From positions 1 through 64,000 of the forward strand of contig ONWR01000003.1 of assembly GCA_900321605.1 (NCBI GenBank): a stretch of DNA of 64,000 nt, in the 5' to 3' direction. A program made the translations under genes and the position numbers. Origin of the DNA: an uncultured Bacteroidales bacterium (lineage in GTDB: Bacteria; Bacteroidota; Bacteroidia; Bacteroidales; Paludibacteraceae). Below are positions 973 to 53,218 of this stretch, piece after piece; position 1 is the first letter of the stretch; each line of letters opens with the position of its first letter. Under the pieces are notes generated by a model, which was not told the DNA's origin, ran no database searches, and saw only the letters and a program-made list of their open reading frames with translations.

Positions 973-1000
973 GACCATCGACTATCGACTAACGACCATC
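973..1000. repeat. Heptamer island, consensus GACYAWC, 4 units
   Basis: Four tandem 7-bp units run into the stop codon of the minus-strand gene (999-1001). A 31-base stretch ending at 1000 is identical to one at 11,340-11,370, 10 kb away, and related units occur at 47,665-47,692. Confidence 0.9.
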
Positions 1001-3347
1001 ATTCTTCCGTCCACCGTGATACTTTATACTCCGAAGGGGTGAGGGTTGTGGAGGCTTTGAAGCAGGTGGCGAAATAATGAGGATTACTGAAACCGCAAGC
1101 ATAAGCGACCTCTTTGACGGAGAGATCGGTCTGCGTCAGCAGCGAACAAGCATGTTTGATACGCGCGGCTTGCAGGAAATCCTTGGGCGAGAGGTTGAAT
1201 AGTTCGTGCATCTTTCGGGTCAGCGACGAACGGCTCATACCCATGGTGGTCATCAAATCATCCACACTGATATCCATATTACCCATATTCTTTTCCATAA
1301 AGGCAGTCAGGGTCTGGATGAACTGCTCATTCTTATTCAGATAGCCGGCAACCATCACTTCCGGCAACGGAGCTTGCGGTATATCTTGTCTATTTTGCAA
1401 GGCAGACAAACGCTCCTGAACGTCCAGATAAGCCTCCAAGGCTTCTTTACGTTTCTTCCTAAGGGCACGCATATGCAGCAGGGAAATGATGATGGTGAGC
1501 AGCGCTGCAAAAGCTCCGACAAGCACTATTGTCCGACCGAAAGTGCTTTCCATGAAGGTCGGTTCGACGATAATAACAAGCCGTCGTACGTTGTTTTGCC
1601 ATTGTTGGTAGGCGTTGGTGGAGCAGATATCCAAGATATATTCTCCCGGGTGCAGGTCAGGTAGTTGTATTTCTGCCACCGACGAAGCGGCACTCCAAGA
1701 AGCCTCCTTCGAATCTTTTTTATCGAACCGATAGCGGTATAAGACAGCACCGCAGTTTCTGAAATCCAATGCCGAGAACCATACGCCAAGACTGCGTTCC
1801 TTAGGCGAAAGGACGATCCTGCTCACTGTGTCCACACCGTACTCCATGGGTCCGTTGCTGCGTTGGAGCGCGCTGATGGCGATCCGAACAGGTTTGGTCT
1901 CTGGTTGCAGATCCGAACGGTTCAATAGCATCAACCCGTCATGCGGAGCTACCAGAAGTCGTGCGTTACCGAGATCCAAGGGCGGTACTTCGCCTAAAAT
2001 AAGGTGTTCATTGCCCGTATAATTGAAAAAGGCGCTTTCGAAATTGACAATCCGGTTCGTATACGTATGGAGCAGACTTAAGGCATTATTGCCTTGCAGC
2101 AGTAGTGTACTGTCGTTCCACGGCATGATCTCATAGACGATGTCGCTTGCCAAACCGTCCTTGGTAGTCAAGTGTTCAAAGCTCCATTTGCCGGCTTGAA
2201 TATCGCTCAGCCGAATGCTGTTTAATCCTCCACCTTCCGTGCCGATAAATAGCTTCCCGTGATGCTCCGAAAGACACATAACGGCATCGCTACTGAGCGA
2301 ATGACTATTCCCTGTTTCGCGTTGGTGCAAGGCAATAAGTCCGTCTCTCAATTCGAGCAAACCGGTAGTGGTGGCAGCGAACAAGGAGCCATCCGTACTT
2401 TTTAGCAAACGCCGAATATACATCCCTTCGGTGCCGGGTACTTGCTCAAATTCTGAATTCTGAAATCTGAAATCTGAATTCTCCCTCACCCATAATCCAA
2501 ACCCATACGTAGCGACCCATAGTCCCTGCTCGTCCGGGAGGATGTCATACGCGTTGCGCACGTTCGAATACGTTTGCTTCCGTTTGCCGTCTATCTCAAT
2601 GAGTGCACCGGGTTTGGTACCTAACCAAACATGGCCGTCTTCGGTCTCGCGGATACAATAGACAGGCGCACCGAAATCTTCCGTCCGGATTATATGCAAC
2701 GTGCTGTCATAGACTGTCACTTGGTTCGTATATCGTCGGGCTGTCCAAATCTCACCGTTCGAGCGTTGGGCTATATACCGCACTTCATCCTTTCCTATCC
2801 GTTTTCCGTGCGGTATAACAGGCGTAGCGATATACAGACCATGCTCATCTATCAACCACACGTTCTCCGCCGGATCGACATACTTATAGCGGATGTTTTT
2901 CAGTCGGGTAAGACCGGTTTGGAAAGTGAGATCCTTACGCCTATAATTGGGGTCATGGTTCGCACGAAGCCGTTCTTGCACCTCCGCTCGCTGTGCAGCC
3001 GAGAGCGTATCAAACGCACACGTACGCGTATTAAATAGGAATATACTGTCTTCTACCAGACAATAGAGGTTGTTGTCTTTGGTCAGTTTGATATGTCGAA
3101 ACTTATCCGATGGAGTAGAGATATTATCCCCGGGTCGGGTTTTGAACACCACAAAACGAGTCCCGTCGAAACGGTTCAGACCGTTCCAAGTAGCTACCCA
3201 AACCATGCCCGTGGAGTCTTGTACCACATGCGACGTGAGCCAATGACTCAATCCATTCCTATCATCAAAAAAACGCAAACGGTACTCCGTAGCGGAAAGT
3301 GAAAGATGCAAAGTGAAAAGTGAAAGGATAATAACTAAGCGTCTCAT
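999..3347 (-). CDS. Two-component-propeller sensor fused to AraC-type DNA-binding domain
   Basis: A 782-aa membrane regulator. It has a signal peptide (residues 1-18), beta-propeller repeats of the Reg_prop type (for example MVWVATWNGLNRFDG near residue 50), a Y_Y_Y-like domain (about 535-600), one membrane helix (about 605-630), a short cytoplasmic linker and a C-terminal AraC helix-turn-helix (about 675-775, ending near YACGFSNPHYFATCFK). Unlike classical hybrid two-component systems it has no histidine-kinase or receiver domain, so the signal would pass directly from periplasm to DNA. The ATG at 3347 is chosen because the upstream TTG at 3371 lies inside the -7 box. It is divergent from the pectin esterase gene, so pectin fragments are a plausible signal (inference). 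Heptamer islands at 2449-2483 and 3300-3327 are translated within it. Confidence 0.88.
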   Translation of the reverse strand: MRRLVIILSLFTLHLSLSATEYRLRFFDDRNGLSHWLTSHVVQDSTGMVWVATWNGLNRFDGTRFVVFKTRPGDNISTPSDKFRHIKLTKDNNLYCLVEDSIFLFNTRTCAFDTLSAAQRAEVQERLRANHDPNYRRKDLTFQTGLTRLKNIRYKYVDPAENVWLIDEHGLYIATPVIPHGKRIGKDEVRYIAQRSNGEIWTARRYTNQVTVYDSTLHIIRTEDFGAPVYCIRETEDGHVWLGTKPGALIEIDGKRKQTYSNVRNAYDILPDEQGLWVATYGFGLWVRENSDFRFQNSEFEQVPGTEGMYIRRLLKSTDGSLFAATTTGLLELRDGLIALHQRETGNSHSLSSDAVMCLSEHHGKLFIGTEGGGLNSIRLSDIQAGKWSFEHLTTKDGLASDIVYEIMPWNDSTLLLQGNNALSLLHTYTNRIVNFESAFFNYTGNEHLILGEVPPLDLGNARLLVAPHDGLMLLNRSDLQPETKPVRIAISALQRSNGPMEYGVDTVSRIVLSPKERSLGVWFSALDFRNCGAVLYRYRFDKKDSKEASWSAASSVAEIQLPDLHPGEYILDICSTNAYQQWQNNVRRLVIIVEPTFMESTFGRTIVLVGAFAALLTIIISLLHMRALRKKRKEALEAYLDVQERLSALQNRQDIPQAPLPEVMVAGYLNKNEQFIQTLTAFMEKNMGNMDISVDDLMTTMGMSRSSLTRKMHELFNLSPKDFLQAARIKHACSLLTQTDLSVKEVAYACGFSNPHYFATCFKASTTLTPSEYKVSRWTEE
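2449..2483. repeat. Heptamer island inside sensor gene, AAWTCTG, 5 units
   Basis: Five 7-bp units are read in frame on the minus strand as the segment NSDFRFQNSEFE between propeller blades. The same unit family occurs in ribD at 32,801-32,835. Confidence 0.9.
3300..3327. repeat. Heptamer island in signal-peptide codons, TGAAARG, 4 units
   Basis: Four 7-bp units encode part of the hydrophobic signal sequence (LSLFTLHLSLS) of the minus-strand sensor. A related island (GRTGAAA) lies at 19,297-19,325. Confidence 0.8.
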
Positions 3348-3368
3348 GGTTCTTTTCAATTGAGGGTG

Positions 3369-3400
3369 CAAAGGTACTAAAAAAATCCGAATGCGCCAAT
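3369..3400 (-). promoter_or_regulatory. Promoter of the sensor gene
   Basis: A TACCTTTG -7 box (complement of 3369-3376) lies about 20 bases upstream of the ATG at 3347. The -33 region (about 3396-3400) is a weak match. Confidence 0.7.
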
Positions 3401-3462
3401 ATTTTTGTGTAAAAATTGATTGATTTGTGTGTTTTTTGTTATTTTATACGTCTTTGGTGAGT

Positions 3463-3499
3463 TTTTGTACGCCCCTATGCGCGAATTATTGTACTTTTG
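3463..3499 (+). promoter_or_regulatory. Promoter of the pectin esterase gene
   Basis: TACTTTTG at 3492-3499 is the -7 box, with a TTTTTG stretch about 23 bases upstream. The region between 3377 and 3491 separates it from the divergent sensor promoter and is where a shared operator would be expected. Confidence 0.7.
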
Positions 3500-3549
3500 C
3501 CGCCGTATTTGAAAACTTTCAGTTTAACAATTTAATAATTTTATTCACC

Positions 3550-6500: not shown

Positions 6501-8235
6501 ACCGCTTACCCAAAACACCAACCTCTATGCGCAGGTTCGTATCGTGGAGGTAGCCGAGACCGGACGTATCTACGAGTACGACATGCGTGTCGCATCCTTC
6601 GATCCCGAGGAGCATGAGTTGCTCGCCACCAATGGTGGCCGTTACAACGACGGACAGCACGGCTGGGTCTTCTCCAATGGAAACACGCTCTCGCTCGAAG
6701 TAGCCGGCAACGCGCTCATCGTAGTCGGCGTCTGCAAGTACTCCGCTACCAGCACCACCGAGATCAAAGATGCTGCCGGCAATACCGTCGGGCAGTTAGA
6801 CGTAGTGAAGAACGAGACCGCAGACGGTTCCGAGCAAGTGATCCGTTATACCGGAGAGGCTACTACCCTCACGTTCTATTTCACCGCAACGAACTACATC
6901 CATTATATTAAGGTTTATCACGTGTCATCCGTGCCCGTGAAGAACGAAGCAGGCTATTACATGATCCAAGCAGGTGATGCCGCAGCCTTCATCTTGGCGC
7001 TGGAGACCGCTGAGTCGGGCGATAAGATCTTCCTGCCCAACGGAACATACGACTTAGGCGAGAAAGTGCTGACGAAGATCGCCAAGGACAATATCGCCAT
7101 CATCGGTGAGTCCATGGACGGAACGATCATCCGGAACGCACCGGACTTCCGTAATGAAGGTATCGGTACCACCGCTACTATCTTGATTCCGAAGAATATC
7201 ACCAACACCTATCTGCAAGATCTGACCCTCCAGAACGCGCTCGATTACTATGCTGCGCTCGATGCAGGTCAAGGTGGTGCACGCGCCGTTGCTTTGCAGG
7301 ATCAGGGTACCAAGACCATCTGCAAGAACGTCAAACTGCTCTCCTATCAAGACACCTATTACAGCAACCTCCCGGGAGCTGTGAAGTACTTCGACGATTG
7401 CGAGATCCATGGTACAGTGGACTTCATCTGTGGTGATGGTAGTGTTTATTTCAAGAACAACCTCCTCTACGCAGAGAAACGCAACCGTAACGGCAGTGGT
7501 AGCGATGCCCTGACTGCTGCTAACAACCCCGCTACGGACAAAGGTTACGTCTTCGTGGATTGTACAATCCAGAGTGAGTGTCCTGTTGTGTCCCTTGGTC
7601 GTGCTTGGAATGGTCAACCCTCGGTTGCCTTCATCAACGCACTCGTGGACTACAGCGCAGGAGAGTTTGCTTTTGAGGGTAACGGCATCCAGCGTTGGAC
7701 CAAAGAGCTTATGAACGCAGGCGCATGGCCGCTCTTCGGAGAGTACAACATGCACTTGGCTGACGGTACCGTCCTCACGCCGGCAAGCAATGTGGTTCAG
7801 TTCGTTGACAAGAATGTGACGCCGAACGAGACTCGCGAGATAGAGACCGTTCTCACGGCAGAGCAAGCTGCGGCGTACACCATGGAATATACCCTCGGAT
7901 CATGGGCTGCTACGGCGGCAAATGATGCGGCACAGGTCGAACTGACTTGTACGGACGGTCAATGGGCTGAAACCGACGCTACCGTCTTCCTCGTGAACCG
8001 CAATGGAGTCCTGACGATGGAGAATACCCTGCCTGCTTTGGAAGAAGGTATGATCGTACGCGCTGCTAACGCACGTGGTGGCTTCGGCAAACCGGCTACG
8101 ATCATTGATACCGAAACCGGAGTAGAGAATGTACAAAGTGACGATGTACAATGTACAAAGATCATTGAAAACGGCGTGCTATACATCATTAAAGACGGTA
8201 AGAAATACAACGCCCAAGGAATCCGAATCCAATAA
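3550..8235 (+). CDS. Secreted bifunctional rhamnogalacturonan/pectin acetylesterase - pectin methylesterase
   Basis: A 1561-aa secreted enzyme. The ATG at 3550 gives a clean signal peptide; the longer upstream frame crosses the promoter. Residues 25-265 are an SGNH esterase (GDSTM with catalytic Ser about 30, a GKSG block, FAHND, and GDKTHT carrying the Asp/His). Residues about 455-575 form a beta domain shared with the acetylesterase at 25,661. An acidic linker (589-609) follows, then two copies of a module containing YNDxQHG with an InlB-type repeat between them (about 923-995). A pectinesterase beta-helix covers about 1130-1430, with QDTYY, DFICG and LGRAWNG as the active-site motifs. The last 30 residues are the shared C-terminal tail. 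One chain would remove both acetyl and methyl groups from pectin outside the cell. Confidence 0.93.
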   Translation: MKKILSIFVAMMLCLPMMQGAIKVHTIGDSTMAEYDESTTDKRGWGMYLGSFFDPAFVTVNNRGKSGADTRGFYTGAAYWPSVKSQMSAGDYLIIQFAHNDEGTVTYGMDNLEYADYCAANGLPAPSDARGTNPQTTYREMLGHFIDEARAMGVTPILVGPICRAYFNGNDIRRNGQHDLGDKFSKIENGVLYENQSLPAGDSTMSYVHAMREVGKAKNVPFINLTEATRQLYLSYGETQCMSLLFCEGDKTHTNAMGGNLVARTAAQMLKNAGILAEHINIPTDISANPSSIAIGETYCGVPQNKEFLLTGYGLEPAAGNVTITATANLQVSIDKTNYASTAQASYEGGSMFQKVFVRANYTEGGEQLDTVYVTSGEHVIAVPVSATAISLVGGAAISATWALSSKTDMTAVVEGPVAAELKMKNMMAADTKSEFSDGESSTITMVRFHNADASGTKTAWPTDEIDENANRYMDFVITAPTNMELQISSISLDIAAHSTSAMCYHINTGIGNKFTDVKTIAEKTNMTNKTIYPLQLATTIKVPAAKTLHVRVLPWHQNASGSGKYICVKNVLIEGQAFESDTIGVPDPEEGEEPGDDPGDDPDPQPDQPVAEGNTTFTWAVCNEAQAAVTSTLPDYINATSMAAGTGLTLGSRTFAANSGVTMTTFMPATSNAGNVESVMVEYAVEMKKGVTFTLKGISYEAIKHGTDGASYSWSYVVDGVESDIMTVSQEELLRDNNTSGTPALKHKQTFENVAGRKVAIRFYVSGFGNTKNFALSNLQLIGDITGEPVVRAFQNFKIDFRQDPYTVLLPEGGELPTGVEVSGLTYNDAQHGVKNVTITVPVDDAVKFTIGSCQFGKHTVTVTKNGEPYATIDNNNGCDSQTSFNHFVEWTYNEEEAATLVFTMTGGFMPFFAAEATEFVPEVEVRYYDTDGKTLIGSEKVPGSSALVYKYGATDVTVPEGMTFRGWFTDASLTATKVKEGTPLTQNTNLYAQVRIVEVAETGRIYEYDMRVASFDPEEHELLATNGGRYNDGQHGWVFSNGNTLSLEVAGNALIVVGVCKYSATSTTEIKDAAGNTVGQLDVVKNETADGSEQVIRYTGEATTLTFYFTATNYIHYIKVYHVSSVPVKNEAGYYMIQAGDAAAFILALETAESGDKIFLPNGTYDLGEKVLTKIAKDNIAIIGESMDGTIIRNAPDFRNEGIGTTATILIPKNITNTYLQDLTLQNALDYYAALDAGQGGARAVALQDQGTKTICKNVKLLSYQDTYYSNLPGAVKYFDDCEIHGTVDFICGDGSVYFKNNLLYAEKRNRNGSGSDALTAANNPATDKGYVFVDCTIQSECPVVSLGRAWNGQPSVAFINALVDYSAGEFAFEGNGIQRWTKELMNAGAWPLFGEYNMHLADGTVLTPASNVVQFVDKNVTPNETREIETVLTAEQAAAYTMEYTLGSWAATAANDAAQVELTCTDGQWAETDATVFLVNRNGVLTMENTLPALEEGMIVRAANARGGFGKPATIIDTETGVENVQSDDVQCTKIIENGVLYIIKDGKKYNAQGIRIQ

Positions 8236-11342: not shown

Positions 11343-11377
11343 GACCATCGACTATCGACTAACGACCATCGACTAAT
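11343..11377. repeat. Heptamer island, GACYAWC, 5 units
   Basis: Five tandem 7-bp units. The first four, plus the three preceding bases, are identical to 970-1000. It lies just before the promoter of the AraC gene. Confidence 0.9.
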
Positions 11378-11398
11378 TTTAAATTTTTAATTGATTTA

Positions 11399-11430
11399 TT
11401 TGCATATATGCAAAAAAAAGTGTACCTTTG
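11399..11430 (+). promoter_or_regulatory. Promoter of the AraC-MATE-PepD operon
   Basis: TTTGC at 11,399-11,403 and TACCTTTG at 11,423-11,430 are separated by 19 bases, the standard Bacteroidetes arrangement. The 5' leader is about 30 bases. Confidence 0.9.
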
Positions 11431-11462
11431 CAGCTGATTTGTGGAAAAATTGGCAGTTTAGA

Positions 11463-19233: not shown

Positions 19234-19817
19234 GCGTACAGACAATAACCGGCGATGCCGGCAAGGACAATCAGCAGAATAGGGTGACTGAAAAAGGATG
19301 TAAGATGAAAGGTGAAAGGCGAAAGTTTTTTGCCTTTTATTAGTTCCGGCAGCACCGTGAAGAGGGCTACTGCTGCGAAGATGATCCAACTGACAGGGTC
19401 AATGAAATTGGTGGGTTTGATGAGCATGAGTGCTGCGGAGGCAATCAGACCGATGACCGTGAAACGCAGGATGCGGAGGGTCTGCTCGAAATACGGATTA
19501 CCTTTGAACCGCTTGTTGAGCCAGAAATATGCCTTGCAGATACTGAGCATGATGATTAGACTCGGCAGGACGATAGCTAAGGTAGCCAGCACGCTTCCCC
19601 ATATACCTGCAGTAGTGTAACCGACATACGTGGCGCAGTTGATACCTATCGGTCCGGGCGTTACCTGACTCACCGCTACGATATCCACAAACTCCTGCTG
19701 CGTCATCCATCCATGCTCCTCCACCTCCATCTGTATCAGCGACAGGATAGCCAAGCCTCCTCCGAACCCGAAGAGACCGATCTTGAAGAATGATATAAAC
19801 AGCTGCAGGTATAGCAA
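19230..19817 (-). CDS. Short chromate transporter subunit (ChrA half)
   Basis: A 195-aa inner-membrane protein with about six helices and the CHR signature FGFGGGLAILSLI near the N terminus, plus SQVTPGPIGINCATYVGY. It is one half of a split ChrA pair: two about 190-aa proteins that together replace the about 400-aa fused form. The family exports chromate or related anions; the physiological substrate here is unknown. It follows the other half with an 8-base gap filled by a heptamer island, and its 3' end overlaps the helicase gene by 4 bases. A second island (19,297-19,325) encodes LSPFTFHLTS between its last helices. Confidence 0.87.
   Translation of the reverse strand: MLYLQLFISFFKIGLFGFGGGLAILSLIQMEVEEHGWMTQQEFVDIVAVSQVTPGPIGINCATYVGYTTAGIWGSVLATLAIVLPSLIIMLSICKAYFWLNKRFKGNPYFEQTLRILRFTVIGLIASAALMLIKPTNFIDPVSWIIFAAVALFTVLPELIKGKKLSPFTFHLTSFFSHPILLIVLAGIAGYCLYA
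19297..19325. repeat. Heptamer island in chromate transporter gene, GRTGAAA, 4 units
   Basis: Four 7-bp units with slight drift, read in frame on the minus strand in the loop before the final helices. Confidence 0.75.
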
Positions 19818-19820
19818 AAT

Positions 19821-19848
19821 AATTGTTAATTGTTAATTGTTAATTTTA
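19821..19848. repeat. Heptamer island, AATTGTT, 4 units
   Basis: Three perfect units and one altered unit cover the stop of the upstream transporter half (19,826-19,828) and reach to 3 bases before the start of the next one. Confidence 0.9.
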
Positions 19849-28255: not shown

Positions 28256-29833
<1,578 letters not shown>

Positions 29834-31916: not shown

Positions 31917-31935
31917 ACTACTATAGTTTTCTCCT

Positions 31936-31970
31936 TTCAACTATCAACTTTCAACTATCAACTTTCACCA
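31936..31970. repeat. Heptamer island, WTCAACT, 5 units
   Basis: Five units fill the gap between thioredoxin-like gene and ribD and supply the last codons of ribD (KVDS). Confidence 0.92.
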
Positions 31971-33030
31971 AAGTGTATAGTCTATTTCCGTCAAAAGTCT
32001 CGAATTCATCGGGTAAATCAATCTTCGGTGCCGGTACTCCTTCGCCGATCTTCAGGTCGGGTGCTACCTCTACATGTATCTCGTCCCATATACCGGTCTG
32101 CAATATATGTGCCAAAAGTGTTGTGCCGCCTTCCACGAGGATCGAATGGATATTCCGCTTCGCCAAATCCTCCAATATATACGGCCAATCTGTCCTGTCT
32201 CTATAAACAATCACCGGCTCAATCCCGTGGTAATCCGAAGCCCCTCCCCAAATCCTTGCGTCATCCGGTATGCGGTGATGCCGGTCAAGGGTCACACGAA
32301 TAGGGTTTCGTCCTTCCCAATGGGTATTGAGCAGTCTCGGGTTATCCATCAGCACGGTGTTGGTACCTACCATGATCGCCATGTTCTCTGCCCGCATCTT
32401 ATGTACCAGTTTCTTCGTCTCCGGTGTCGATATCGTCAATGCACCATTGAGGTGTAATTTTGAATTTTTAATTTTTAATTTTGAATTCTGACGGTTTCCA
32501 TCGATGAAACCGTCAGCTGTCTGTGCCCATTTGAGCGTGACGTAAGGTCTTTTTTTCTCGTATAGACAAAGGAATCGTTTGTTCAACTCGCGGCATTCTT
32601 TCTCCAACACGCCTACCACCACTTCGATTCCGGCATCCCGTAACATCTGCACCCCTTTGCCTGCTACCAGCGGGTTCGGGTCTAACATCCCGACTACCAC
32701 ACGTCCTACGCCTTCCTCGATAATCAGTTTCGCGCAAGGCGGCGTCTTCCCGTAATGACTGCACGGCTCAAGGCTGACAAATAGCGTGCAAGTAGAAAGG
32801 TCTGAATACTGACTTCTGAATTCTGAATTCTCAAAATGCTTAAAGCAGTTCACTTCCGCATGCCCTTCACCATACCGTTCGTGCCACCCTTCTGCAAGGA
32901 TAACCTCGGAAGAGTCGGGGTTAGGCTTCCCTACCAAAACTGCCCCGACCATAGGGTTCGGTGCTACGAAATACTCCCCTCGACGGGCGATTTCGATGCA
33001 ATGTGCAATATATTTTTCGTAATTATTCAC
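31951..33030 (-). CDS. ribD: Riboflavin biosynthesis deaminase/reductase
   Basis: A 359-aa bifunctional enzyme: deaminates and reduces the pyrimidine intermediate of riboflavin synthesis. The N-terminal deaminase has zinc ligands in GHAEVN and LEPCSHYGKTPPC (residues about 50-95); the C-terminal reductase has VGTNTVLMDNPRL and LVEGGTTL. There is no ATG near the expected start; GTG at 33,030 (or TTG 33,033) is used. Two heptamer islands are translated inside: ENSEFRSQYSDL between the deaminase HAE and PCxxC motifs (an unusually sensitive place) and NSKLKIKNSKL at the domain junction. Its promoter appears to lie inside divergent prmC. Confidence 0.92.
   Translation of the reverse strand: MNNYEKYIAHCIEIARRGEYFVAPNPMVGAVLVGKPNPDSSEVILAEGWHERYGEGHAEVNCFKHFENSEFRSQYSDLSTCTLFVSLEPCSHYGKTPPCAKLIIEEGVGRVVVGMLDPNPLVAGKGVQMLRDAGIEVVVGVLEKECRELNKRFLCLYEKKRPYVTLKWAQTADGFIDGNRQNSKLKIKNSKLHLNGALTISTPETKKLVHKMRAENMAIMVGTNTVLMDNPRLLNTHWEGRNPIRVTLDRHHRIPDDARIWGGASDYHGIEPVIVYRDRTDWPYILEDLAKRNIHSILVEGGTTLLAHILQTGIWDEIHVEVAPDLKIGEGVPAPKIDLPDEFETFDGNRLYTLVKVDS
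32458..32492. repeat. Heptamer island in ribD, TTTTKAA, 5 units
   Basis: Five 7-bp units encode NSKLKIKNSKLHL (7-residue periodic) between the deaminase and reductase domains. Confidence 0.92.
32801..32835. repeat. Heptamer island in ribD, TCTGAAT, 5 units
   Basis: Five 7-bp units, same family as 2449-2483, translated as ENSEFRSQYSD between the two zinc-ligand motifs of the deaminase domain. Confidence 0.9.
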
Positions 33031-33119: not shown

Positions 33120-33161
33120 AAATGTCAAATATCCAATCTCAAATTTCAAATATCCAATCCG
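33120..33161. repeat. Heptamer island at prmC start, AAATNTC/CAATCTC, 6 units
   Basis: Six 7-bp units in which the prmC start codon itself (33,122-33,124) lies; translation gives MSNIQSQ ISNIQSA. A CCGCC/GGCGG hairpin (33,159-33,173) follows at once. The same unit family occurs in the BspA paralogue at 46,973-47,007. Confidence 0.93.
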
Positions 33162-34057
33162 CCTTGCAGGCGGCTTATCCGGCAGATGAAGCTAATGCCT
33201 TAGCTTGGTGGATTGCGGAAGAACTGACCGGTCTTAGTCGTACCGAATTGCAATTTGGGTGCAAAGGTACAAATTTTTCTTCACATATGCAAGAAATCGA
33301 GACAATAATCGACAGATTATTGCATTTTGAGCCTATTCAGTACATCTTTGGGCATACTTTATGGAACGGATTAGATCTTAAGGTCACTCCTTCGACCCTT
33401 ATTCCCCGTCCCGAAACCGCCGAACTGGTGGAACGTATAAATGAGAAAATGCTAAATGACCAACGACCAACGACTAATGACCAACGACCAACGACTGTCT
33501 TGGACATCGGCACCGGTTCCGGTTGTATAGCTATAGCTCTCAAGAAAGCGCATCCCGAATGGTCTGTGACCGGTATAGACATCTCCCCCGAAGCCATCGA
33601 AGTAGCAAAAGAGAATGCCCGCCGCAATAATGTCGATGTGCATTTCGAAGTCGCAGATATTTTCTCTGACCAAATGACCAAATATCTCAATAAATGGTAC
33701 ATGGTAAATGACCAAATGGTAAATGAGAAAATGGTAAATATCGTCGTCTCTAACCCTCCCTATATCTGTGAGAGCGAAAAAGTCTCGATGAAATCGAATG
33801 TTTTGGACTATGAGCCCTCTACTGCCCTCTTTGTTCCCGACTCCGATCCCTTGCTCTTCTACCGACGCATCGCAGAACTCTTCTTCCGTACACCATACAC
33901 CATACACCGTACACCAAAATACCTCTTCTTCGAAATCAACGAAGCCTACGGACCTCAATTATCCGCCATGCTGAGCGGATTAGGTTACACCGATATACAA
34001 ATTCACAAAGATATTTATGGCAAAGACCGAATTATCGAAGCTCGAATGGCTCGCTAA
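33122..34057 (+). CDS. prmC: Peptide chain release factor glutamine methyltransferase
   Basis: A 311-aa SAM enzyme (HemK/PrmC) that methylates the glutamine of the GGQ motif in release factors. The N-terminal helical domain ends at EPIQYIFG; RPETAELV, the SAM motif VLDIGTGSGCIAIAL and the catalytic NPPY (VVSNPPYI) are intact. Remarkably, four heptamer islands are translated: at the N terminus, between RPETAELV and VLDIG (NDQRPTT twice), just before NPPY (MVNDQMVNEKMVN) and near the end (FRTPYTIHRTPK). An antisense promoter lies at codons 47-57. The gene overlaps recX by 41 bases. Confidence 0.93.
   Translation: MSNIQSQISNIQSALQAAYPADEANALAWWIAEELTGLSRTELQFGCKGTNFSSHMQEIETIIDRLLHFEPIQYIFGHTLWNGLDLKVTPSTLIPRPETAELVERINEKMLNDQRPTTNDQRPTTVLDIGTGSGCIAIALKKAHPEWSVTGIDISPEAIEVAKENARRNNVDVHFEVADIFSDQMTKYLNKWYMVNDQMVNEKMVNIVVSNPPYICESEKVSMKSNVLDYEPSTALFVPDSDPLLFYRRIAELFFRTPYTIHRTPKYLFFEINEAYGPQLSAMLSGLGYTDIQIHKDIYGKDRIIEARMAR
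33262..33293 (-). promoter_or_regulatory. Minus-strand promoter inside prmC, probably for ribD
   Basis: On the minus strand CTTGC (complement of 33,289-33,293), 19 bases, TACCTTTG (complement of 33,262-33,269). The flank GGGTGCAAAGGTA is the same as at the udk and sensor promoters. It points to ribD about 230 bases away and no other promoter is seen for ribD. Confidence 0.75.
33440..33499. repeat. Heptamer island in prmC, GACCAAC/GACTAAT, 6 units
   Basis: 33,458-33,499 is six exact 7-bp units with a related leader. The translation is NDQRPTT twice, immediately before the SAM-binding motif. Confidence 0.95.
33668..33740. repeat. 7/8-bp repeat island in prmC, GACCAAAT and GGTAAAT units
   Basis: Two GACCAAAT units, a short gap, then alternating GGTAAAT and GACCAAAT/GAGAAAAT units, in frame just before the catalytic NPPY codons. 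Confidence 0.9.
33888..33915. repeat. Heptamer island in prmC, RTACACC, 4 units
   Basis: Four 7-bp units translated as RTPYTIHRTP near the C terminus. Confidence 0.92.
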
Positions 34058-38377: not shown

Positions 38378-38397
38378 TCATCAAAAATAGTAGAGTT

Positions 38398-41300: not shown

Positions 41301-41469
41301 CGGCACCGTCTATCGCAGCTGCGTGTATGAGATGCGTCCGACGGAAGGAATAGACCAAGTACAAAGGGACGATGTACGATGTACGAAGGTCATCCGGGAC
41401 GGACATCTGTATTTGATGGTCGGGGAGAAAATCTATAGTGTTTTCGGACAGGAAATCAAAGGCTTATGA
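38398..41469 (+). CDS. Giant secreted protein with GLUG-type repeats and PKD-like domains (partner of downstream barrel)
   Basis: A 1023-aa protein. ATG 38,398 gives a signal peptide matching that of the preceding gene. GLUG-like repeats (NVGGLTGTNYGQIAYSYNTG, residues about 130-250) resemble those of IgA-peptidase-type surface proteins. Two PKD-like domains (around 580-780), a CPDSD-type Cys region and the penultimate module with FTAYQWYKDGE follow, then the shared tail. The stop overlaps the start of the OmpA-type gene (ATGA), so the two are made together. The stretch 38.5-42.8 kb is visibly richer in G+C than its LRR neighbours (sample lines 53-60% against 43%), a possible sign of separate origin. 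Confidence 0.82.
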   Translation: MKTKNVFCLLFVVFLLLKGTCAYATPWNGATTAPGLLGTTYTVTTAEQLAWVAQQSQTDDFAGYTIRLEADIDLGGAQETPPSWTPIGNAAHPFMGELDGNNHVIYNLYILNSFPSGAGLFAETGVSAVIHHTGLAQGQIMTDATSNVGGFIGINRGYLHHCFNMAQIIAHNGDNVGGLTGTNYGQIAYSYNTGIITDANNHVGGLAGVNKASAVLNECYNTGYCKGSDHAGALFGLNEAPASQLTRVYFDQQVTRTYVTGYGVNDVLDNTLYAVEKTGTFTSKNNPFNQLPEWNIIRDGYYRYPRLQCFGDHEAALVSVNCILLDADNLPVERAEGVGAPKEGNAPRKQFALFGASGSVWFSPSDEVIHIRSNSTAEVVRPCGNQEVILTVTEGSTTKQIYTIVKGYEKFDAGRMEGVKTACWREETKLISANHDGKEPLGGKDDEQGGVYGYQYMIIRDTVVYDEHMNPVSYTPMDTFYMEHKPYSNWNMPTDVSGTYAFRRYTHDYQCKTDWTESPGRVYMTVLGDFDAGKLYDKPDTLYGVLPITFTIESERDASGGAGIFSYLWKMKTEKETKNPLYIDGVPVNTASFNFTFEQPGTYVFTRRASDAMCSTSPIESESPHTVVVYEAIDPGAVDSFAMTLCNPKYYGSIEEKSPVSGGNGNYIYRWTCNGEAMLHSDTVSLPLNDFVMTNGSRYVFRRQVKDDSGLMDWLTSEGAVTLFADGLSDSCMAVCSQKKTVNVTVCMSDLPYTDTYTFIDGHAETYTLSADNETVVMHDHTIDGCPMEVSIVCQASAVPVVDIQPVVDLCPSDSALTILFAVREGKPDRYDLVFPTDAQQAGFVSRTGETLPADGRIAVPMPQGVSAGTYYMSVVFYAGKGNWSCKSETYFFPFTLLTDGFVHRKWNDVVFVDSSDKNCEPDCDGDLQFTAYQWYKDGERVEGATGQYYHETGGLNGFYQVEMTGSDGTVYRSCVYEMRPTEGIDQVQRDDVRCTKVIRDGHLYLMVGEKIYSVFGQEIKGL

Positions 41470-43008: not shown

Positions 43009-43221
43009 GTGGTGATACACATCCGGGGACGCAATGCAGAAGAAAAAGCAGTAGAAAGCACCCACGGTTCGTTCCGCACAAAAGGAGAGGGCGAAAGTAC
43101 AGAAGGCCTCATGGATGTACAAGGGGACGATGTACAATGTACAAAGGTGCTTCGCGACGGACAGATCTATATAATGTACAAAGGGACAATGTACAATGTA
43201 CAAGGAAACCAGATAAAATAA
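43009..43221 (+). pseudogene. Orphan C-terminal tail of a deleted BspA-like gene
   Basis: An open frame ends with the complete shared tail (LRDGQIYIMYKGTMYNVQGN) but has no signal peptide, repeats or convincing start (only GTG). The 3' 75 bases are nearly identical to the tail of the gene at 43,231, and the sequence after the stop is identical to that after the next gene's stop. A promoter lies just upstream. It looks like the remnant of the first member of a tandem array whose body was deleted. The rest of 42,849-43,008 holds only the promoter and leader. Confidence 0.75.
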
Positions 43222-45300: not shown

Positions 45301-47367
45301 ATGAAAACGAAAGTATCTATTATTCTTGTTTGCCTGACGATGATGGCAAATAGCTTGTATGCGACGGTTTATAACGGCGTGTGCGGGGAACATCTGACAT
45401 GGAGTTATGACACGGAGACGGCGCACATGACCATTGAGGGCTACGGCGAGTTGAAGAACACAGTCGATAGTCTCTGGTGGAACAAACAGGTGTTGCAGGC
45501 TTCGTCGTGGTCAACGAACTATAAGACGTACTATCCTTATAACTCGTGCAAAACGATTTCGCTGCCGGAAGGGCTGACGGGATTCAGCGGTGCGACATTC
45601 CGGGATTGGTGGAACCTGACGGCGTGCGAGATCCCCGAAGGCGTGACAAAAATACCTGCTTACCTATTTGAGAGCTGTTACCAGCTGAAAGAGATCAAAC
45701 TGCCTAACTCGGTGGACACCGTGGGACAATACGCCTTCAGCAACTGTACGACGATGGTAAAGTGCGATTTGGGCAAAGGGGTTAAGTATATCGGTCAGAT
45801 GGCCTTCCAGAACTGCTATCACTTGAACTCTGTTCGCTGGTCGGACTGTCTGGAGGAGATAGACGGCAGTATTTTTGACGGCGAACCCGATAGAGCGTCA
45901 TACGACCAAAATAGTGTAGCCACTATTCCGCTTCGGGACACGCTGTTTTTCCCGGCGACGTTCCTCTCAAACAAACAGATCTCGTGGTGCTACCACGATA
46001 GTCCTGTTATTGTTTGGAATGCCAAGAACCCTCCGGCTTCTTCGTCGGTATTTTATAATCTTTACTGCTATTGGAGGGGCGATTTTATCTTCGGTCCGGA
46101 TGTAGAGTTTGTGCCGTCAGGTCTATGCCAGCAGGTACTCATGAAGAAAATCGTGCTGCCTGAGGGCTGTAAATATATCGGTTCAGGCGCCTTCTTGGGT
46201 AACAACAAGTTGGATACAGTTATCCTTCCTTCTACGCTGACAGCTATTCACCAAGAGGCTTTCAAGGGATGTACGAAGATTCAGCGAATCACTATACCTC
46301 AGAAAGTGAAAGCCATCAATTCTTCCGTATTCAACGGGTGTTCAGCCTTGAGGCGAGTCGAGATACCGGATAGCGTCAGCACTATCGGGGATAATGCCTT
46401 CTCAGGATGTCCGAACTTGGATTCTATCGTACTGCCGAAAGAACTGACCATGATCGGCGGAAGTGCGTTCTCGGGGGTTAAGTTGCAAGATTCGCTGGTT
46501 ATTCCCGACAAGGTAATCTCCATTGGCACGAACGCCTTTGAAAACTGGAGTGCGCTCAAGGAGTTGTCGATTGGCAAAAACGTCGTTCTCATCGGGGATA
46601 ATGCCTTCAAGGGCGACAGCGCGATAACACATATTTCCGTCTGGGCAGCTACTCCTCCTGCGGTAAGCGAAGGGACATTGGCGGACATTCCTGACAGTAC
46701 TTTATTGAGTGTGTTACCTGATAGCCGTAAACTTTATCGCGAGCACCCTTATTGGGGACGGTTCCGTATGAGCGATGTACCGGATTCGGCGATGATCCAA
46801 CGTACCGTGACTGTGGATGCTGCGGAAACGACAGCGGATTTCACATGGCCGACAGACAGCGCGGCGCATAGTTATCAGATAGATATATACAAAGACGGCG
46901 CGGTGTTCTGCAAGCTGACGTTAGGCAACAGAGGACAGCTGTTAGGCATCTCCTTCTCCGCGCCGGGCAGAAAAATGTCCAATATGCAATCTCAAATCTC
47001 AAATGCTGACGATAGTCAGCCCTATACCCTCTCCTTCAAAGTGACAGGTCTCGATGCTGCTTCGCGGTATAACTACGTCCTCTCTACCCTCGATGCAACC
47101 GGAACGCCTATTCACGTCTATACCGGAGCTTTTGCGACCACCGGCTATTCGGGCGAAAAGCCTGTTGGTGACGGTCAGGAGATCATCCCGACACCGCCTG
47201 TCATTCCCGCGGATCCCGAAGCATCAGAAACACCCACCGGCATCGAAGAATTATCCGATGAAACCGGCACTTTTGAGGGTTCGAACGGCAAGATTCTCCG
47301 TAATGGTCAACTCCTCATCCGTCACGGCAAAAACTGCTACACCCTCACTGGTCAGGAAATGAAATAA
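45301..47367 (+). CDS. BspA-like leucine-rich-repeat surface protein, tandem paralogue
   Basis: A 688-aa secreted protein with the same architecture as its upstream neighbour (signal peptide, CGEHLTWSYD start, LRR_5 repeats, Fn3-like domain, Pro-rich hinge). The tail differs: ILRNGQLLIRHGKNCYTLTG. A heptamer island at 46,973-47,007 is translated as KMSNMQSQISNA inside the Fn3-like domain, at a place where the neighbour has an unrelated, 9-residue-shorter loop, so the insertion is directly visible by comparison. The gap from the upstream gene is 9 bases. Confidence 0.92.
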   Translation: MKTKVSIILVCLTMMANSLYATVYNGVCGEHLTWSYDTETAHMTIEGYGELKNTVDSLWWNKQVLQASSWSTNYKTYYPYNSCKTISLPEGLTGFSGATFRDWWNLTACEIPEGVTKIPAYLFESCYQLKEIKLPNSVDTVGQYAFSNCTTMVKCDLGKGVKYIGQMAFQNCYHLNSVRWSDCLEEIDGSIFDGEPDRASYDQNSVATIPLRDTLFFPATFLSNKQISWCYHDSPVIVWNAKNPPASSSVFYNLYCYWRGDFIFGPDVEFVPSGLCQQVLMKKIVLPEGCKYIGSGAFLGNNKLDTVILPSTLTAIHQEAFKGCTKIQRITIPQKVKAINSSVFNGCSALRRVEIPDSVSTIGDNAFSGCPNLDSIVLPKELTMIGGSAFSGVKLQDSLVIPDKVISIGTNAFENWSALKELSIGKNVVLIGDNAFKGDSAITHISVWAATPPAVSEGTLADIPDSTLLSVLPDSRKLYREHPYWGRFRMSDVPDSAMIQRTVTVDAAETTADFTWPTDSAAHSYQIDIYKDGAVFCKLTLGNRGQLLGISFSAPGRKMSNMQSQISNADDSQPYTLSFKVTGLDAASRYNYVLSTLDATGTPIHVYTGAFATTGYSGEKPVGDGQEIIPTPPVIPADPEASETPTGIEELSDETGTFEGSNGKILRNGQLLIRHGKNCYTLTGQEMK
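46973..47007. repeat. Heptamer island in BspA paralogue, AAATNTC/CAATCTC, 5 units
   Basis: Five 7-bp units of the prmC-start family; absent from the tandem paralogue at the equivalent place. Confidence 0.93.
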
Positions 47368-47692: not shown

Positions 47693-47695
47693 AAA

Positions 47696-50600: not shown

Positions 50601-51496
50601 TGGATACGGTGGTTTGCGACACGCTGATGCCGTACCGATGGCGGGATACGCTGTTTACAGAACCTGCTACCTATGAGATTCTGTATAAGAACGAACGGGG
50701 CTGTGACAGTCTGCTCCGTGTACTGACTCTTAATACCCAGATCTGCTGTCCGAAGATGGTGACTATTACCGCTGACACCATGGTTTGTGACACGTTGATG
50801 CCGTATCGCTGGCGAGACACGCTGTTTACAGAACCTGCTACCTATGAGATTCTGTATAAGAACGAACGGGGCTGTGACAGTCTGCTCCGTTTACTGACTT
50901 TAGGTACACAAGTGTGTTGTCCCAATGTGGTGACTATCACTGCGGACACCACGGTCTGCGACACCTTGATGCCTTTTACGTGGACGATAGGCGGTCAGAC
51001 TTTTGTGTTTGAACAAGCAGAGACGCAAGAACGGGAAATGCCACACCCGAAATGGACGGAGTGTACCGGTACGAACTATGTGCTGCGTCTGGATACGTTC
51101 CATTGCGAGAAATTGTGGCAGATCATCGTCAATAAATACAACTGGCAGCTGTTGTTGGACAATGTGAGTTTGTCTCGTTTCTTTCCCCAAAACGCTGCGC
51201 GTACGTATCAATGGTACAAGAACGAAGCCCCGATACCCGGTGCTAACGGCGATGATTACTCCGAGCAGAACGAGCTCTGCGGACGATTCCAACTGCGGGT
51301 AGAGATGGATGATGGTCAGACGATCTGGTCGAATCTCTTGGAGATAGGAAAACCGCAGGTGGAAGAGCCGGTTCGCGTGCGGATCTACGACAGTCATGGT
51401 GTACCGGTGCAGGAAAACCAAGTGTCACACGGAGTGTATCTCTACCGCTATGAGCAGGGAGATCGGAAATGGACGGAGAAGAGACTGATACCATGA
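47696..51496 (+). CDS. Giant secreted protein with three lectin-like repeats (partner of downstream barrel)
   Basis: A 1266-aa protein with signal peptide (MKRFWSIVFGILLAMPVVAQ). Three tandem units of about 330 residues each start LLFREDFGGNDP and contain GNDFALDDIEIHLC, a jelly-roll carbohydrate-binding-like fold, followed by an Ig-like VCENTATTLTANF segment in the first two. Then come three copies of a VVCDTLMPYRWRDTLF...NERGCDSLL repeat common in Bacteroidales surface proteins, a penultimate module with RTYQWYKNE, and a type IX-secretion-like end (RIYDSHGVPVQ, then GVYLYRY). The last stop overlaps the barrel gene (ATGA). Repeat copies are very similar in DNA (48,430-48,560 versus 49,395-49,520), implying recent duplication. 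Confidence 0.85.
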   Translation: MKRFWSIVFGILLAMPVVAQEEPLFTDGTLLFREDFGGNDPNDPEVISDANAARAAVLGMSSGYIPCLSRTSGMSSGKFLVTKQGYQNGIQWHIMDDHTYPNDKTKGYLLQIDGRGDDAPFYTTTIEDLCPGSRLTFSAYVANVMTWGHYTNPNRHDIYPRMKFVLTDPSSGTELATYDTGDIPFDSASIGDNSCWQNSAHWRLIGMNFTVPNGTYRVKLTIYNNVAQNGSGNDFVLDDIEIHLCTPPVTIEGETEVCENTATTLTANFNNDGTFAEPLAYKWWHSLDSVTWSEMSGFNGEILTFNAVQKNDSGWYKVAVSGDGNIENINCRAMSEPFRLRVSECAENLCIDGTLLFREDFGGNDPSDPDVSMVNVPGMSSQYYNSGNSLGSGNYTIRKEGWLNGIQWHRQDDHTYPDDKTRGYLLEVDGMGGAEPFYSTTIDGLCAGSKLTFSAYVVNAHYAGQLDYFGGRYIYPRMKFVLKDPTTGSILAEKSTGDIQPDWRYGTPETWKYARENSLSAEWQLIGMNFIVPDGIESIQMFIYNDVERNGTGNDFALDDIEIHLCAPPVAIEGETEVCENVATTLTANLTNDGTFAEPLAYKWWHSLDSVTWSEMSGFNGEILTFSTIQKADSGWYKVAVSSAENIESENCRAMSEPFRLRVNKCTEDLCTDGILLFREDFGGNDPSDPRVGTNPVPGMSYTQATNDVFRTMGSGKYIVTKSGYCNGDTTGWSLPGADQSTYRSQWYIQDDHTYPNDYSRGYFMEIDGSGGNQQFYQTEISGLCEGIELTFSAYVANVFTWFQYDWYTRNRGPVIAPCLKFVLTNPQTGETLVEKNTQQIPFAEDLSVKTDWQYSSPWYLVGMNFIVPTGIPAIRLTIYNNVTNGNGNDFALDDIEIRLCMTPDTIRTDTTVCDTLQQIAWRGKEYAVAATLRDTVYSHCGFDSIYYELHVATKHCEPPCPELITITVDTVVCDTLMPYRWRDTLFTEPATYEILYKNERGCDSLLRVLTLNTQICCPKMVTITADTMVCDTLMPYRWRDTLFTEPATYEILYKNERGCDSLLRLLTLGTQVCCPNVVTITADTTVCDTLMPFTWTIGGQTFVFEQAETQEREMPHPKWTECTGTNYVLRLDTFHCEKLWQIIVNKYNWQLLLDNVSLSRFFPQNAARTYQWYKNEAPIPGANGDDYSEQNELCGRFQLRVEMDDGQTIWSNLLEIGKPQVEEPVRVRIYDSHGVPVQENQVSHGVYLYRYEQGDRKWTEKRLIP

Positions 51497-52430: not shown

Positions 52431-52449
52431 GTAAAAAAATCTTCATTTA

Positions 52450-52481
52450 TTTGCATATATCCCAAAAAATTATTACCTTTG
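52450..52481 (+). promoter_or_regulatory. Promoter of rfbC-rfbD
   Basis: TTTGC at 52,450-52,454, 19 bases, TACCTTTG at 52,474-52,481. Confidence 0.9.
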
Positions 52482-52497
52482 CACACTTTTTTATAAA

Positions 52498-52526
52498 TTG
52501 TACATCGTAAATTGTTAAATCGTACA
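52498..52526. repeat. 7-bp repeat island in rfbC leader, TYGTAMA, 4 units
   Basis: TTGTACA, TCGTAAA, TTGTTAAA and TCGTACA fill the leader before the ATG. Confidence 0.85.
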
Positions 52527-52533
52527 TAAACTA

Positions 52534-53082
52534 ATGAATATTATTAAGACTCCGATTGAGGGATTGTTGGTGATTGAGCCGCAGGTATTCAAGGATGCAC
52601 GCGGGTATTTCGTGGAGACGTACAACGAGCAGCGTTACCGCGAGGCAGGGATAGATGCGCAGTTCGTGCAGGACAACCAGAGTTGTTCGTCTTACGGTGT
52701 GGTACGCGGTTTGCATTTCCAGCGTCCTCCTTATACGCAGGCTAAGTTAGTGTGCTGCACGGTAGGCAGGGTGTTGGATGTAGCGGTGGATCTGCGAAAG
52801 GACAGCCCCACTTTCGGACAATGGTACAGCGTGGAGTTGAGCGAGGAGAACAAACGGCAGTTCTTTATCCCGAAAGGTTTTGCACACGGCTTCTCGGTGT
52901 TGAGCAATCAGGCTATTTTTACCTATAAATGCGATAACCTCTATCACCCCGAGGCAGATGGCGGACTGCTGCTGAGCGACCCGGATTTGGCGATCGATTG
53001 GCAAGTCCCGGCAGAGTTGCGCATTATAAGCCCCAAAGACACCAAACATCCTAAAATGGCAGAATTCAAAACGCCATTTTGA
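52534..53082 (+). CDS. rfbC: dTDP-4-dehydrorhamnose 3,5-epimerase
   Basis: A 182-aa cupin enzyme of usual length for dTDP-L-rhamnose synthesis. Characteristic segments: FKDARGYFVETYNEQRY, QDNQSCSSYGVVRGLHFQ (catalytic His), VAVDLRKDSPTFGQWYSVEL and FIPKGFAHGFSVLS. The 3' codons form an AAAATGGC/GCCATTTT hairpin (53,053-53,080). It is first gene of the rfbC-rfbD pair; rfbA and rfbB are not in the window. Confidence 0.96.
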   Translation: MNIIKTPIEGLLVIEPQVFKDARGYFVETYNEQRYREAGIDAQFVQDNQSCSSYGVVRGLHFQRPPYTQAKLVCCTVGRVLDVAVDLRKDSPTFGQWYSVELSEENKRQFFIPKGFAHGFSVLSNQAIFTYKCDNLYHPEADGGLLLSDPDLAIDWQVPAELRIISPKDTKHPKMAEFKTPF

Positions 53083-53218
53083 TTGACGATTTGACGATTG
53101 ACGAGGTACGATTGATGGACGATTGAGAATAATTGACGATTGTCCGCCGCGTAAATCGTAAATAAATAAAACTCGTAAATAAATCGTAAATCGTAAATGA
53201 CCAAATCGTAAATAAAGA
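53081..53218. repeat. Intergenic region made wholly of 7-bp repeats (TTGACGA, then CGTAAAT)
   Basis: The whole 138-base gap between rfbC and rfbD is two repeat runs: TTGACGA/ACGATTG units to about 53,140 and CGTAAAT units to 53,215, with small irregular spacers. Confidence 0.93.

What the first reader, a model, noticed from the sequence alone, without database searches (positions are those of the whole stretch)
973..53218. A genome-wide 7-bp-period repeat system with many different unit sequences
At least twenty islands of 3-8 tandem units, nearly all with a period of exactly 7 bp (a few 8), occur in this 64-kb window. Units differ widely (GACYAWC, AAWTCTG, TTGAGAG, WTCAACT, TTTTKAA, RTACACC, CGTAAAT, AATTGTT, AAATNTC), so shared ancestry of one sequence does not explain them; the common property is the period. 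They lie in spacers, across start and stop codons, and in frame inside genes. Heptanucleotide tandem repeats are known from heterocyst-forming cyanobacteria; I know of no description of a multi-unit system in Bacteroidales. A template-switching or polymerase-slippage process with fixed 7-base geometry is one possible cause (inference).
Basis: partly seen in the sequence, partly recalled or inferred. Interest (0 to 1): 0.92.

Follow-up and report, generated by a model that had tools for sequence, protein, structure and literature searches.

The report
Seven-base repeat arrays in gut bacteria
An uncultured gut bacterium and many of its relatives carry many tiny tandem repeats with a unit of seven bases, in the gaps between genes and in loops of essential proteins, where the repeat is often lost or swapped for another between strains; seven-base repeats are a known oddity of bacterial genomes, and this lineage makes their origin testable.

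Summary
The window holds 17-20 period-7 islands; a 585,755-base sample of the genome holds 141 (241 per Mb), against 1 in total for periods 2-6. The host is an uncultured Bacteroidales (Paludibacteraceae). Congeners range from none found to similar density.

The claim that units are unrelated is only partly right. Units recur (collision probability 0.033 against 0.002 for random spacer heptamers), share a loose consensus, and form species dialects.

Against a close strain (RUG454), 40 of 46 comparable islands differ: altered, swapped for another unit, or absent. Inside genes all 11 length changes are multiples of 3. In two housekeeping genes, RibD and PrmC, different species carry different units, mostly at the same few loops. 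One 93-bp tract holding an array is identical between RUG454 and another species, so some swaps are recombination.

Best reading: heptanucleotide simple-sequence repeats (a known class), copied from existing arrays and turned over fast, with selection leaving them mainly in spacers and protein loops. The 7-nt polymerase idea dates from 2007 (as quoted by two later papers). Why seven is unexplained. New variant of a known kind.

The parts
973..1000 (+). GACCATC-type heptad array at the stop end of the AraC/two-component propeller gene 999-3371(-)
   Evidence: gene domains
2449..2482 (+). AATTCTG array inside the same gene; no heptad array in RUG454, net difference 21 bp
8128..8158 (+). AATGTAC array near the 3' end of the large ORF 3427-8235
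   Evidence: sequence shown
11343..11375 (+). GACTATC/GACCATC array upstream of an AraC-type gene; its first units repeat the 973 array in order
19293..19325 (+). AAAGGTG array inside a chromate-transporter gene; altered but of the same length in RUG454
19820..19845 (+). TAATTGT array across the stop end of chromate-transporter gene 19826-20359(-) and the gap to the next transporter gene; in RUG454 the units read TAATTTT at the same total length (concerted change)
28378..28420 (+). AGTTGAG array inside an NAD-epimerase-family gene; absent in RUG454 (39 bp net)
31928..31967 (+). TCAACTA/TCAACTT array at the border between a thioredoxin-like gene and ribD; absent in RUG454
32456..32491 (+). AATTTTG array inside ribD (about aa 181-193); absent in RUG454 (21 bp net)
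32802..32831 (+). TCTGAAT array inside ribD (about aa 68-77); identical in RUG454
33120..33158 (+). AAATATC array at the N-terminus of prmC; absent in RUG454
33455..33495 (+). GACCAAC array in prmC before methyltransferase motif I (about aa 119-132); replaced by an AAATCTK array in RUG454
33691..33739 (+). TAAATGG-type degenerate array in prmC before the NPPY motif (about aa 197-213); replaced in RUG454, largely verbatim in L109 and L062
33886..33915 (+). TACACCA array in prmC (about aa 262-272); different content in RUG454, similar array in L063 and L117
38329..38359 (+). AATGTAC array at the 3' end of the LRR gene 36137-38377
41369..41386 (+). ACGATGT array inside ORF 38293-41469
43173..43203 (+). 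AATGTAC array upstream of the LRR gene 43231-45291
46988..47004 (+). short AATCTCA array inside ORF 45301-47367
53180..53198 (+). TAAATCG array in the spacer between the dTDP-sugar isomerase gene and the RmlD-type gene

Best explanation
These are heptanucleotide simple-sequence repeat arrays of a lineage in which they are made and lost very fast. Inferred working: replication or repair synthesis tends to realign by seven nucleotides, so arrays grow, shrink and homogenise in steps of seven. Existing arrays are copied to other places of the genome, probably by template switching or annealing at short matches, which gives a shared vocabulary of units with a loose RTT-containing consensus and a species dialect. 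Homologous exchange of short tracts between strains and species moves some arrays between orthologous sites. Selection removes arrays from most coding sequence and leaves them mainly in spacers and protein loops, and inside genes keeps only those whose net length preserves the reading frame. Shown: period, recurrence of units, fast turnover between two strains, frame preservation, loop placement in two proteins, and one clear between-species tract. Inferred: the enzymology, the direction of change at each site, and why seven. I see no sign of a regulatory function.
For: Period 7 against all others, and almost no periods 2-6, with period 7 leading inside genes too (49 islands against 0-8 for periods 6, 8-12, 15, 18 and 21). 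Turnover: of 46 own islands bracketed in RUG454, 5 segments and 1 further island are identical, 21 lack a heptad array, 8 keep the unit, 7 have a unit 1-2 changes away, 4 have another unit. In genes 11 of 19 bracketed islands differ in length, all 11 by multiples of 3, against 5 of 150 bracketed control gene segments. Of the 8 pairs that keep the unit, 5 keep the length and 3 differ, by 21, 28 and 59 bp; a further 7-bp step is; concerted change at 19820. Vocabulary. Copying: 132 of 141 islands have an array-level match elsewhere in the sample, 46 of 131 share an exact 24-mer. Sites: 37 of 109 RibD and 47 of 92 PrmC loci (partly the same genomes twice) carry islands, mostly at a few shared places with different units; the window's are at or beside gaps against solved structures, and three of the four in PrmC fall in low-confidence loops of its model, the fourth at the N-terminus only partly. 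Exchange: 93 identical bases holding the array between RUG454 and L109.
Against: In spacers, islands change length no more clearly than control spacers (11 of 17 against 35 of 73). Long identical tracts with other species are not concentrated on arrays: of exact matches of 45 bp or more, 1 of 13 for RUG454 and 0 of 21 for the window overlap a strict island (two of the 21 cover the degenerate array at 33691-33739), so exchange is a general feature of the region. A systematic alignment scan found 0 of 790 cross-species island windows against 148 hits in control windows, though it also missed the known case. Only 48 of 115 islands match three units of the degenerate pattern RTTDRNV, and the reversed pattern also matches arrays, so the consensus is weak. 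Sharing of 24-mers may partly follow from the shared vocabulary alone. I could not show an insertion with known ancestral state. The only gene family tested against array density, reverse transcriptase, does not go with it.
Confidence: 0.6

Rival explanations
1. Each array is born on the spot by polymerase slippage or template switching with a fixed 7-base geometry from whatever local sequence is there.
For: Sharp period 7 with almost no shorter periods; length steps of 7, 21 and 28 in arrays that keep their unit; different units at the same site in different species.
Against: Units recur about 17 times more often than random spacer heptamers of this genome would (0.033 against 0.0019). Of 21 alleles without an array, the two longest matches to the array (14 and 16 bp) are residual arrays; the others share 3-8 bp, with a permuted mean of 4.2 over all 21.
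Confidence: 0.15
2. Turnover is wholly due to homologous exchange of short tracts with other species; arrays themselves are old and change slowly.
For: 93-bp identical tract holding the array between RUG454 and L109; 75 and 60 bp at the third prmC cell between the window and L109 and L062; substitutions between the two strains are strongly clustered (50-bp bins: mean 2.39, variance 13.26), heptad islands lie in 6 of 13 clusters, and in 4 of the 13 one allele is closer to another species than any of 55 quiet windows (maximum 92.9%).
Against: Steps of seven and concerted unit change occur between strains; 9 of the 13 clusters show no such donor-like allele in the 79 loci searched; recurrence of units at unlinked places suggests copying within the genome.
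Confidence: 0.12
3. The arrays are miniature selfish elements moved by a dedicated enzyme, like the palindromic elements of Rickettsia that sit in frame in genes.
For: Recurrence at many places, in-frame presence in housekeeping genes, loop placement; other short cassettes occupy the same kind of cell.
Against: No excess of hairpin stability: predicted energy of 5-unit arrays is like that of position-permuted units. No fixed unit or length; by eye, no target duplication at the few clean insertions.
Confidence: 0.08
4. They are regulatory sites (binding sites, or translation control as suggested for TAACTGA repeats of Beggiatoaceae).
For: Nearly half (68 of 141) lie in spacers, which are about 13% of the sample; a regulatory role was proposed for TAACTGA repeats.
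Against: Islands are fewer per kb in divergent, promoter-only spacers (11 in 16.4 kb) than in tandem (72 in 47.9 kb) or convergent ones (9 in 5.8 kb); 49 of 141 lie inside genes; units and presence differ between close strains.
Confidence: 0.05

Closest known systems
Heptanucleotide long simple-sequence repeats of bacterial genomes (2007 survey by Mrazek and colleagues, seen only as quoted in PMC4679880 and PMC4692102)
   Same: Excess of tandem repeats with 7-nt units, patchy between genomes.
   Different: Here a third of islands lie inside genes although 7 is not a multiple of 3; many unit families share one genome and one loose consensus; strain-level replacement at fixed cells is documented.
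TAACTGA direct repeats of Beggiatoaceae, cyanobacteria and five Bacteroidetes (MacGregor 2015, PMC4679880; abstract and three sections read)
   Same: Short heptamer arrays, mostly intergenic; indels mostly in 7-nt steps between two close cyanobacterial strains; mixed heptamer assemblages; Paludibacter propionicigenes has two sets.
   Different: There one unit is followed and in the main species most sets lie just upstream of start codons; here TAACTGA is not among the 51 unit classes of 134 islands.
Heptanucleotide repeats of cyanobacteria, including the P6b stem of the Nostoc tRNA-Leu intron (PMC3488679, passages read; the STRR families are recalled)
   Same: Degenerate heptads of different classes at one fixed site, varying in number and by added non-heptad segments between genotypes.
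   Different: That is one RNA stem; here many sites, some of them protein loops.
GGGAATC / GGGGAYT heptamers of Xanthomonas and Nostoc (PMC4692102, passages read)
   Same: Genome-wide heptamer arrays with length and sequence variation between related genomes at mostly the same gene pairs.
   Different: Those are G-quadruplex-type units; here no G-run unit is common.
Rickettsia palindromic elements (passages in PMC10969869)
   Same: Small repeats kept in frame inside metabolic genes.
   Different: Those are palindromic elements of about 150 bp with a conserved peptide; these are heptad arrays of about 30 bp without an excess of hairpin potential.

Membership tests
Heptanucleotide long simple-sequence repeats | Tandem repeats longer than chance with a dominant 7-nt unit | tested here: met
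   17 against 0.17 in the window; 141 islands in 585,755 bases
Heptanucleotide long simple-sequence repeats | Coding repeats favour units that are multiples of 3 | tested here: not met
   Inside genes period 7 leads: 49 against 0-8 for periods 6, 8-12, 15, 18 and 21. This is a tendency reported for the class rather than a strict criterion
TAACTGA direct repeats | The unit TAACTGA | tested here: not met
   Canonical class AACTGAT is absent from the 51 classes of 134 islands listed; arrays shorter than about 17 bp were not scored
TAACTGA direct repeats | Location just upstream of start codons | tested here: inconclusive
   49 of 141 islands are in genes and 24 span a gene border; distances to start codons were not measured
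Rickettsia palindromic elements / MITEs | Inverted-repeat structure of about 100-150 bp | tested here: not met
   Median island length 32 bp; no excess of hairpin stability over permuted units
Rickettsia palindromic elements / MITEs | In-frame occurrence in protein-coding genes | tested here: met
   11 of 11 in-gene length differences between the two strains are multiples of 3
Products of a template-RNA reverse transcriptase | Reverse transcriptase in every array-rich genome | tested here: not met
   No RVT_1 match in the own genome or in G049, which has the highest index; 14 of 61 genomes have a match and their index does not differ
Phase-variable contingency loci | Repeat-number change switches a gene on and off within a clone | not testable with these tools
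   Only one assembly per strain was compared; in-gene changes keep the frame

The most novel reading that the evidence does not exclude
These genomes carry a copying process with a hard 7-nucleotide register that uses existing arrays as templates: an RTT-like anchor repeated every seven bases lets many arrays prime on one another, so a self-perpetuating vocabulary of heptads is written again and again into the same loops and spacers, and the whole process is switched on and off between congeners.
Probability: 0.2. Interest if true: 0.9.

Novelty: new variant of a known kind. Interest (0 to 1): 0.6.

Why it matters
Why seven is the favourite long repeat unit of bacteria is, as far as the papers I saw say, unsettled since the 2007 survey that they quote. 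Here congeners range from no island in 40-80 kb sampled to about 240 per Mb, arrays turn over within what looks like one species, and in-gene cells give a frame-constrained control, so rate, template and enzyme can be looked for by comparing congeners. The finding also shows that loops of housekeeping enzymes in this lineage are filled with fast-changing repeat-coded peptide, which matters for anyone aligning or annotating these proteins, and that comparison of strains can be confused by swapped cells.

Tried and rejected
Reverse transcriptase as the source: absent from the own genome; no difference in array index between the 14 genomes with and the 42 tabulated genomes without a match (medians 38 and 34 per Mb, p = 0.22). 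Hairpin-free units as the common property: energy of 5-unit arrays not different from permuted units. Units drawn from common genomic heptamers: observed classes are about as frequent in spacers (0.0021 against 0.0019) and rarer in genes (0.0007 against 0.0011) than random draws. Local seeding from the allele without an array: the excess in longest common substring (5.67 against 4.23) rests mainly on 2 of 21 loci that keep a residual array. Promoter or terminator sites: placement does not fit. Multiple-alignment scan for cross-species arrays: 0 of 790 island windows, 148 control hits; it also missed the known RUG454-L109 tract, so I count it as uninformative.

Limits of the index: it is the sum of the four columns, the reversed control included, because the reversed pattern also hits arrays. 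It counts overlapping positions and fits some dialects better than others: G043 has about 25 per Mb by index but 112 islands per Mb in its sample. Order-wide 130 of 198 genomes match, but samples of two high-index genomes of other families held few islands (G205 1 in 33,813 bases of small contigs, G250 5 in 200,000), so I do not claim equal density outside the genus.

Rows dropped: islands with N; islands too near a piece end or without both flanks in the RUG454 sample (141 to 46 in the fate count). For the correlation of index with RibD identity 56 of 61 genomes were tabulated: G000, G021, G032, G044 and G053 were left out (the query itself and those with no or only a weak RibD match).
Full report
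WHAT IS THERE. Tandem Repeats Finder gives 28 period-7 rows in the window, 20 with three or more copies. A scan for runs of s[i]=s[i+p] gives 17 period-7 islands against 0.17 expected from 30 fourth-order Markov copies, and 0-3 for every other period from 3 to 25 apart from the harmonics 14 and 21. The window is in contig 25 of an assembly of 2,315,634 bases in 64 contigs. RibD relatives in named records are titled uncultured Bacteroidales or Paludibacteraceae, many from rumen and gut. In 585,755 sampled bases of the genome there are 141 islands of score 12 or more (241 per Mb, 0.82% of bases, median length 32, longest 80), against 1 for periods 2-6 together, 38 for 8, 17 for 9, 9 for 10 and 15 for 11.

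WHERE. My ORF-based gene calls (436 genes, 87% coding) place 68 islands in spacers, 49 in genes and 24 across gene borders. Spacers between divergent genes, where promoters must be, hold fewer per kb (11 in 16.4 kb) than tandem (72 in 47.9 kb) and convergent ones (9 in 5.8 kb). In genes, where an orientation could be assigned, the RTT strand is antisense in 21 and sense in 8 (20 undecided), as expected if stop codons in the sense direction are removed.

UNITS. The 134 islands of score 10 or more in the first 464,000 bases fall into 51 classes (rotation and strand removed); the commonest are AAAAATT (11) and AACGACC (10). A circular, strand-free alignment of units gives a similar loose consensus (TCAATTK and TCAAYTN, that is, RTT followed by GA on the other strand) for 115 islands of this genome and 188 of other genomes, well above units with permuted positions (own: log-likelihood -6.28 against -7.10, s.d. 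0.06; others: -6.26 against -7.08, s.d. 0.04). It is weak: 48 of 115 islands match three units of RTTDRNV. Two islands of this genome have the same class with probability 0.033; position-permuted units give 0.004, random spacer heptamers 0.0019, and an own island against one of other species 0.010. G049 and G050 have another favourite, AACTATC. So there is a shared vocabulary with species dialects, not independent units. 132 of 141 islands have an array-level match elsewhere in the sample, 70 with a match running 15 bp or more into a flank, and 46 of the 131 islands of 24 bp or more share an exact 24-mer with another island.

STRAIN COMPARISON. L059 belongs to RUG454. Its RibD is 94% identical to the window's; aligned DNA blocks of the region are 88-97% identical for blocks over 400 bp and 94% overall with the variable cells included. 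Of 141 own islands, 46 could be bracketed by both flanks in the 285,129 bases (partly overlapping pieces) of RUG454 held: 5 identical, 1 with the island identical, 21 without a heptad array, 8 with the same unit, 7 with a unit one or two changes away, 4 with another unit; flanks of the 40 changed ones are 87-99% identical. Inside genes 11 of 19 differ in length and all 11 differences are multiples of 3 (4 are multiples of 7); control gene segments differ in 5 of 150 bracketed (400 placed). In spacers it is 11 of 17 against 35 of 73 bracketed controls, so there the arrays are not clearly worse than spacers in general. Examples: GACCAAC array against AAATCTK array in prmC; GTCGTTA arrays against ATTGAAA and GAGAGTT arrays; TAATTGT against TAATTTT with every unit changed and the length kept. 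The reverse comparison (51 RUG454 islands, 33 bracketed, some counted twice) gives 6 identical, 19 with and 8 without a heptad array in the own genome.

SPECIES COMPARISON. In RibD 37 of 109 loci and in PrmC 47 of 92 loci hold a heptad island of score 10 or more (the two locus sets partly repeat the same genomes; positions are in ORF coordinates). Most lie at a few shared places, with many different units. In the window's proteins these places are at or beside gaps against solved RibD and PrmC (HemK) sequences, and in PrmC they lie between conserved motifs of 36 aligned relatives. The PrmC model (mean pLDDT 85.6) drops at residues 1-8 and in the blocks 121-130, 201-210 and 261-270; the window's arrays are coded at about residues 7-20, 119-132, 197-213 and 262-272. 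Other short repeated cassettes fill the same kind of cell.

HOW ARRAYS ARE SWAPPED. At the prmC cell before motif I, RUG454 and L109, another species by RibD identity (75%), share 93 identical bases that hold the whole array, while flanking 60-column blocks fall to 78-92%; the window, presumably of the same species as RUG454, has a different array and different neighbouring codons. At the third prmC cell the window shares 75 bp with L109 and 60 bp with L062 while RUG454 differs. Substitutions between window and RUG454 are strongly clustered (50-bp bins: mean 2.39, variance 13.26; 51 empty bins against 18 expected); heptad islands lie in 6 of the 13 clusters, and in 4 of the 13 one allele is closer to another species than any of 55 quiet windows. 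Long identical tracts with other species are, however, spread over the region and not centred on arrays.

DISTRIBUTION. A degenerate pattern index (sum of four columns) over 61 genomes of the genus ranges from 0 (G013, G028, G048) to 1166 (G049), own genome 370. Direct samples: no island in 80 kb of G029, 60 kb of G028 and 40 kb of G020; 10 per Mb in G016 and G038, 36 in G037, 112 in G043, 125 in G007, 100 in 40 kb of G014; 228 in G049 and 190 in G050. Index and samples agree only roughly. Index per Mb rises with RibD identity to the own genome (Spearman 0.53, 56 genomes); the 22 with 72% identity or more all have about 25 per Mb or more. Across the order 130 of 198 genomes match the pattern, patchily even within genera, with the caveat told under Tried and rejected.

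KNOWN OR NEW. Two papers, read in part, say that a 2007 survey found heptamers the commonest long simple-sequence repeat in most or many bacterial genomes and proposed a 7-nt polymerase contact as cause (passages, introduction); I did not see that survey itself. TAACTGA heptamers are in print for five Bacteroidetes including Paludibacter. My searches for heptanucleotide tandem repeats with Bacteroidetes, for heptamer repeats with Bacteroidales, and for Paludibacteraceae with tandem repeats brought up no description of a multi-unit system or of in-gene swapped cells in this group; only open-licence papers were searched. I therefore call it a new variant of a known kind.

WHAT IS SHOWN AND WHAT IS INFERRED. 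Shown: the period, its near exclusiveness, the vocabulary, fast turnover between two strains, frame preservation, loop placement in two proteins, and one clear between-species tract. Inferred: that arrays are copied by template switching or annealing, that a 7-nt register belongs to a polymerase, and that the loops are merely tolerated. Not known: the enzyme, and why seven.

Noticed in passing
window 38329-38359, 43173-43203, 8128-8158: At the first two places a near-identical stretch with GTACAAT heptads reads (by eye) as a peptide tail like RDGQIYIMYKGTMYNVQG, which resembles a C-terminal sorting tail of secreted proteins; at 8128 a heptad array lies just before a similar tail. The heptad word may have spread from or into these tails.
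   Followed up: partly
window 54996-55047; RUG454 allele opposite L027:10217; L027:6546: Cassettes of about 20-25 bp with GCTTCGCCTGACAG and palindromic CCCCTTGTGGGGAGG-type cassettes occupy the same kind of variable cells as the heptads.
   Followed up: partly
window 36137-38377 and L077: The BspA-type LRR gene shares identical tracts of 136, 122 and 83 bp with another species, a sign of short-tract exchange or transfer between species.
   Followed up: partly
window 11374-11441, 16892-16972, 21013-21090: Stretches of about 60-80 bp recur at many places of RUG454, apparently dispersed repeats.
   Followed up: no
window 54948-54984: An 8/16-bp array (AGGATTAG) begins a few bases after the tRNA-Arg gene at 54869-54941.
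   Followed up: no
window 50610-50973: A 171-bp unit is repeated about twice in tandem inside ORF 47696-51496.
   Followed up: no
genus samples L059-L138: Period 11 is commoner than period 8 in several relatives (20 against 2 in L101-L138), whereas period 8 is second after 7 in the own genome.
   Followed up: no
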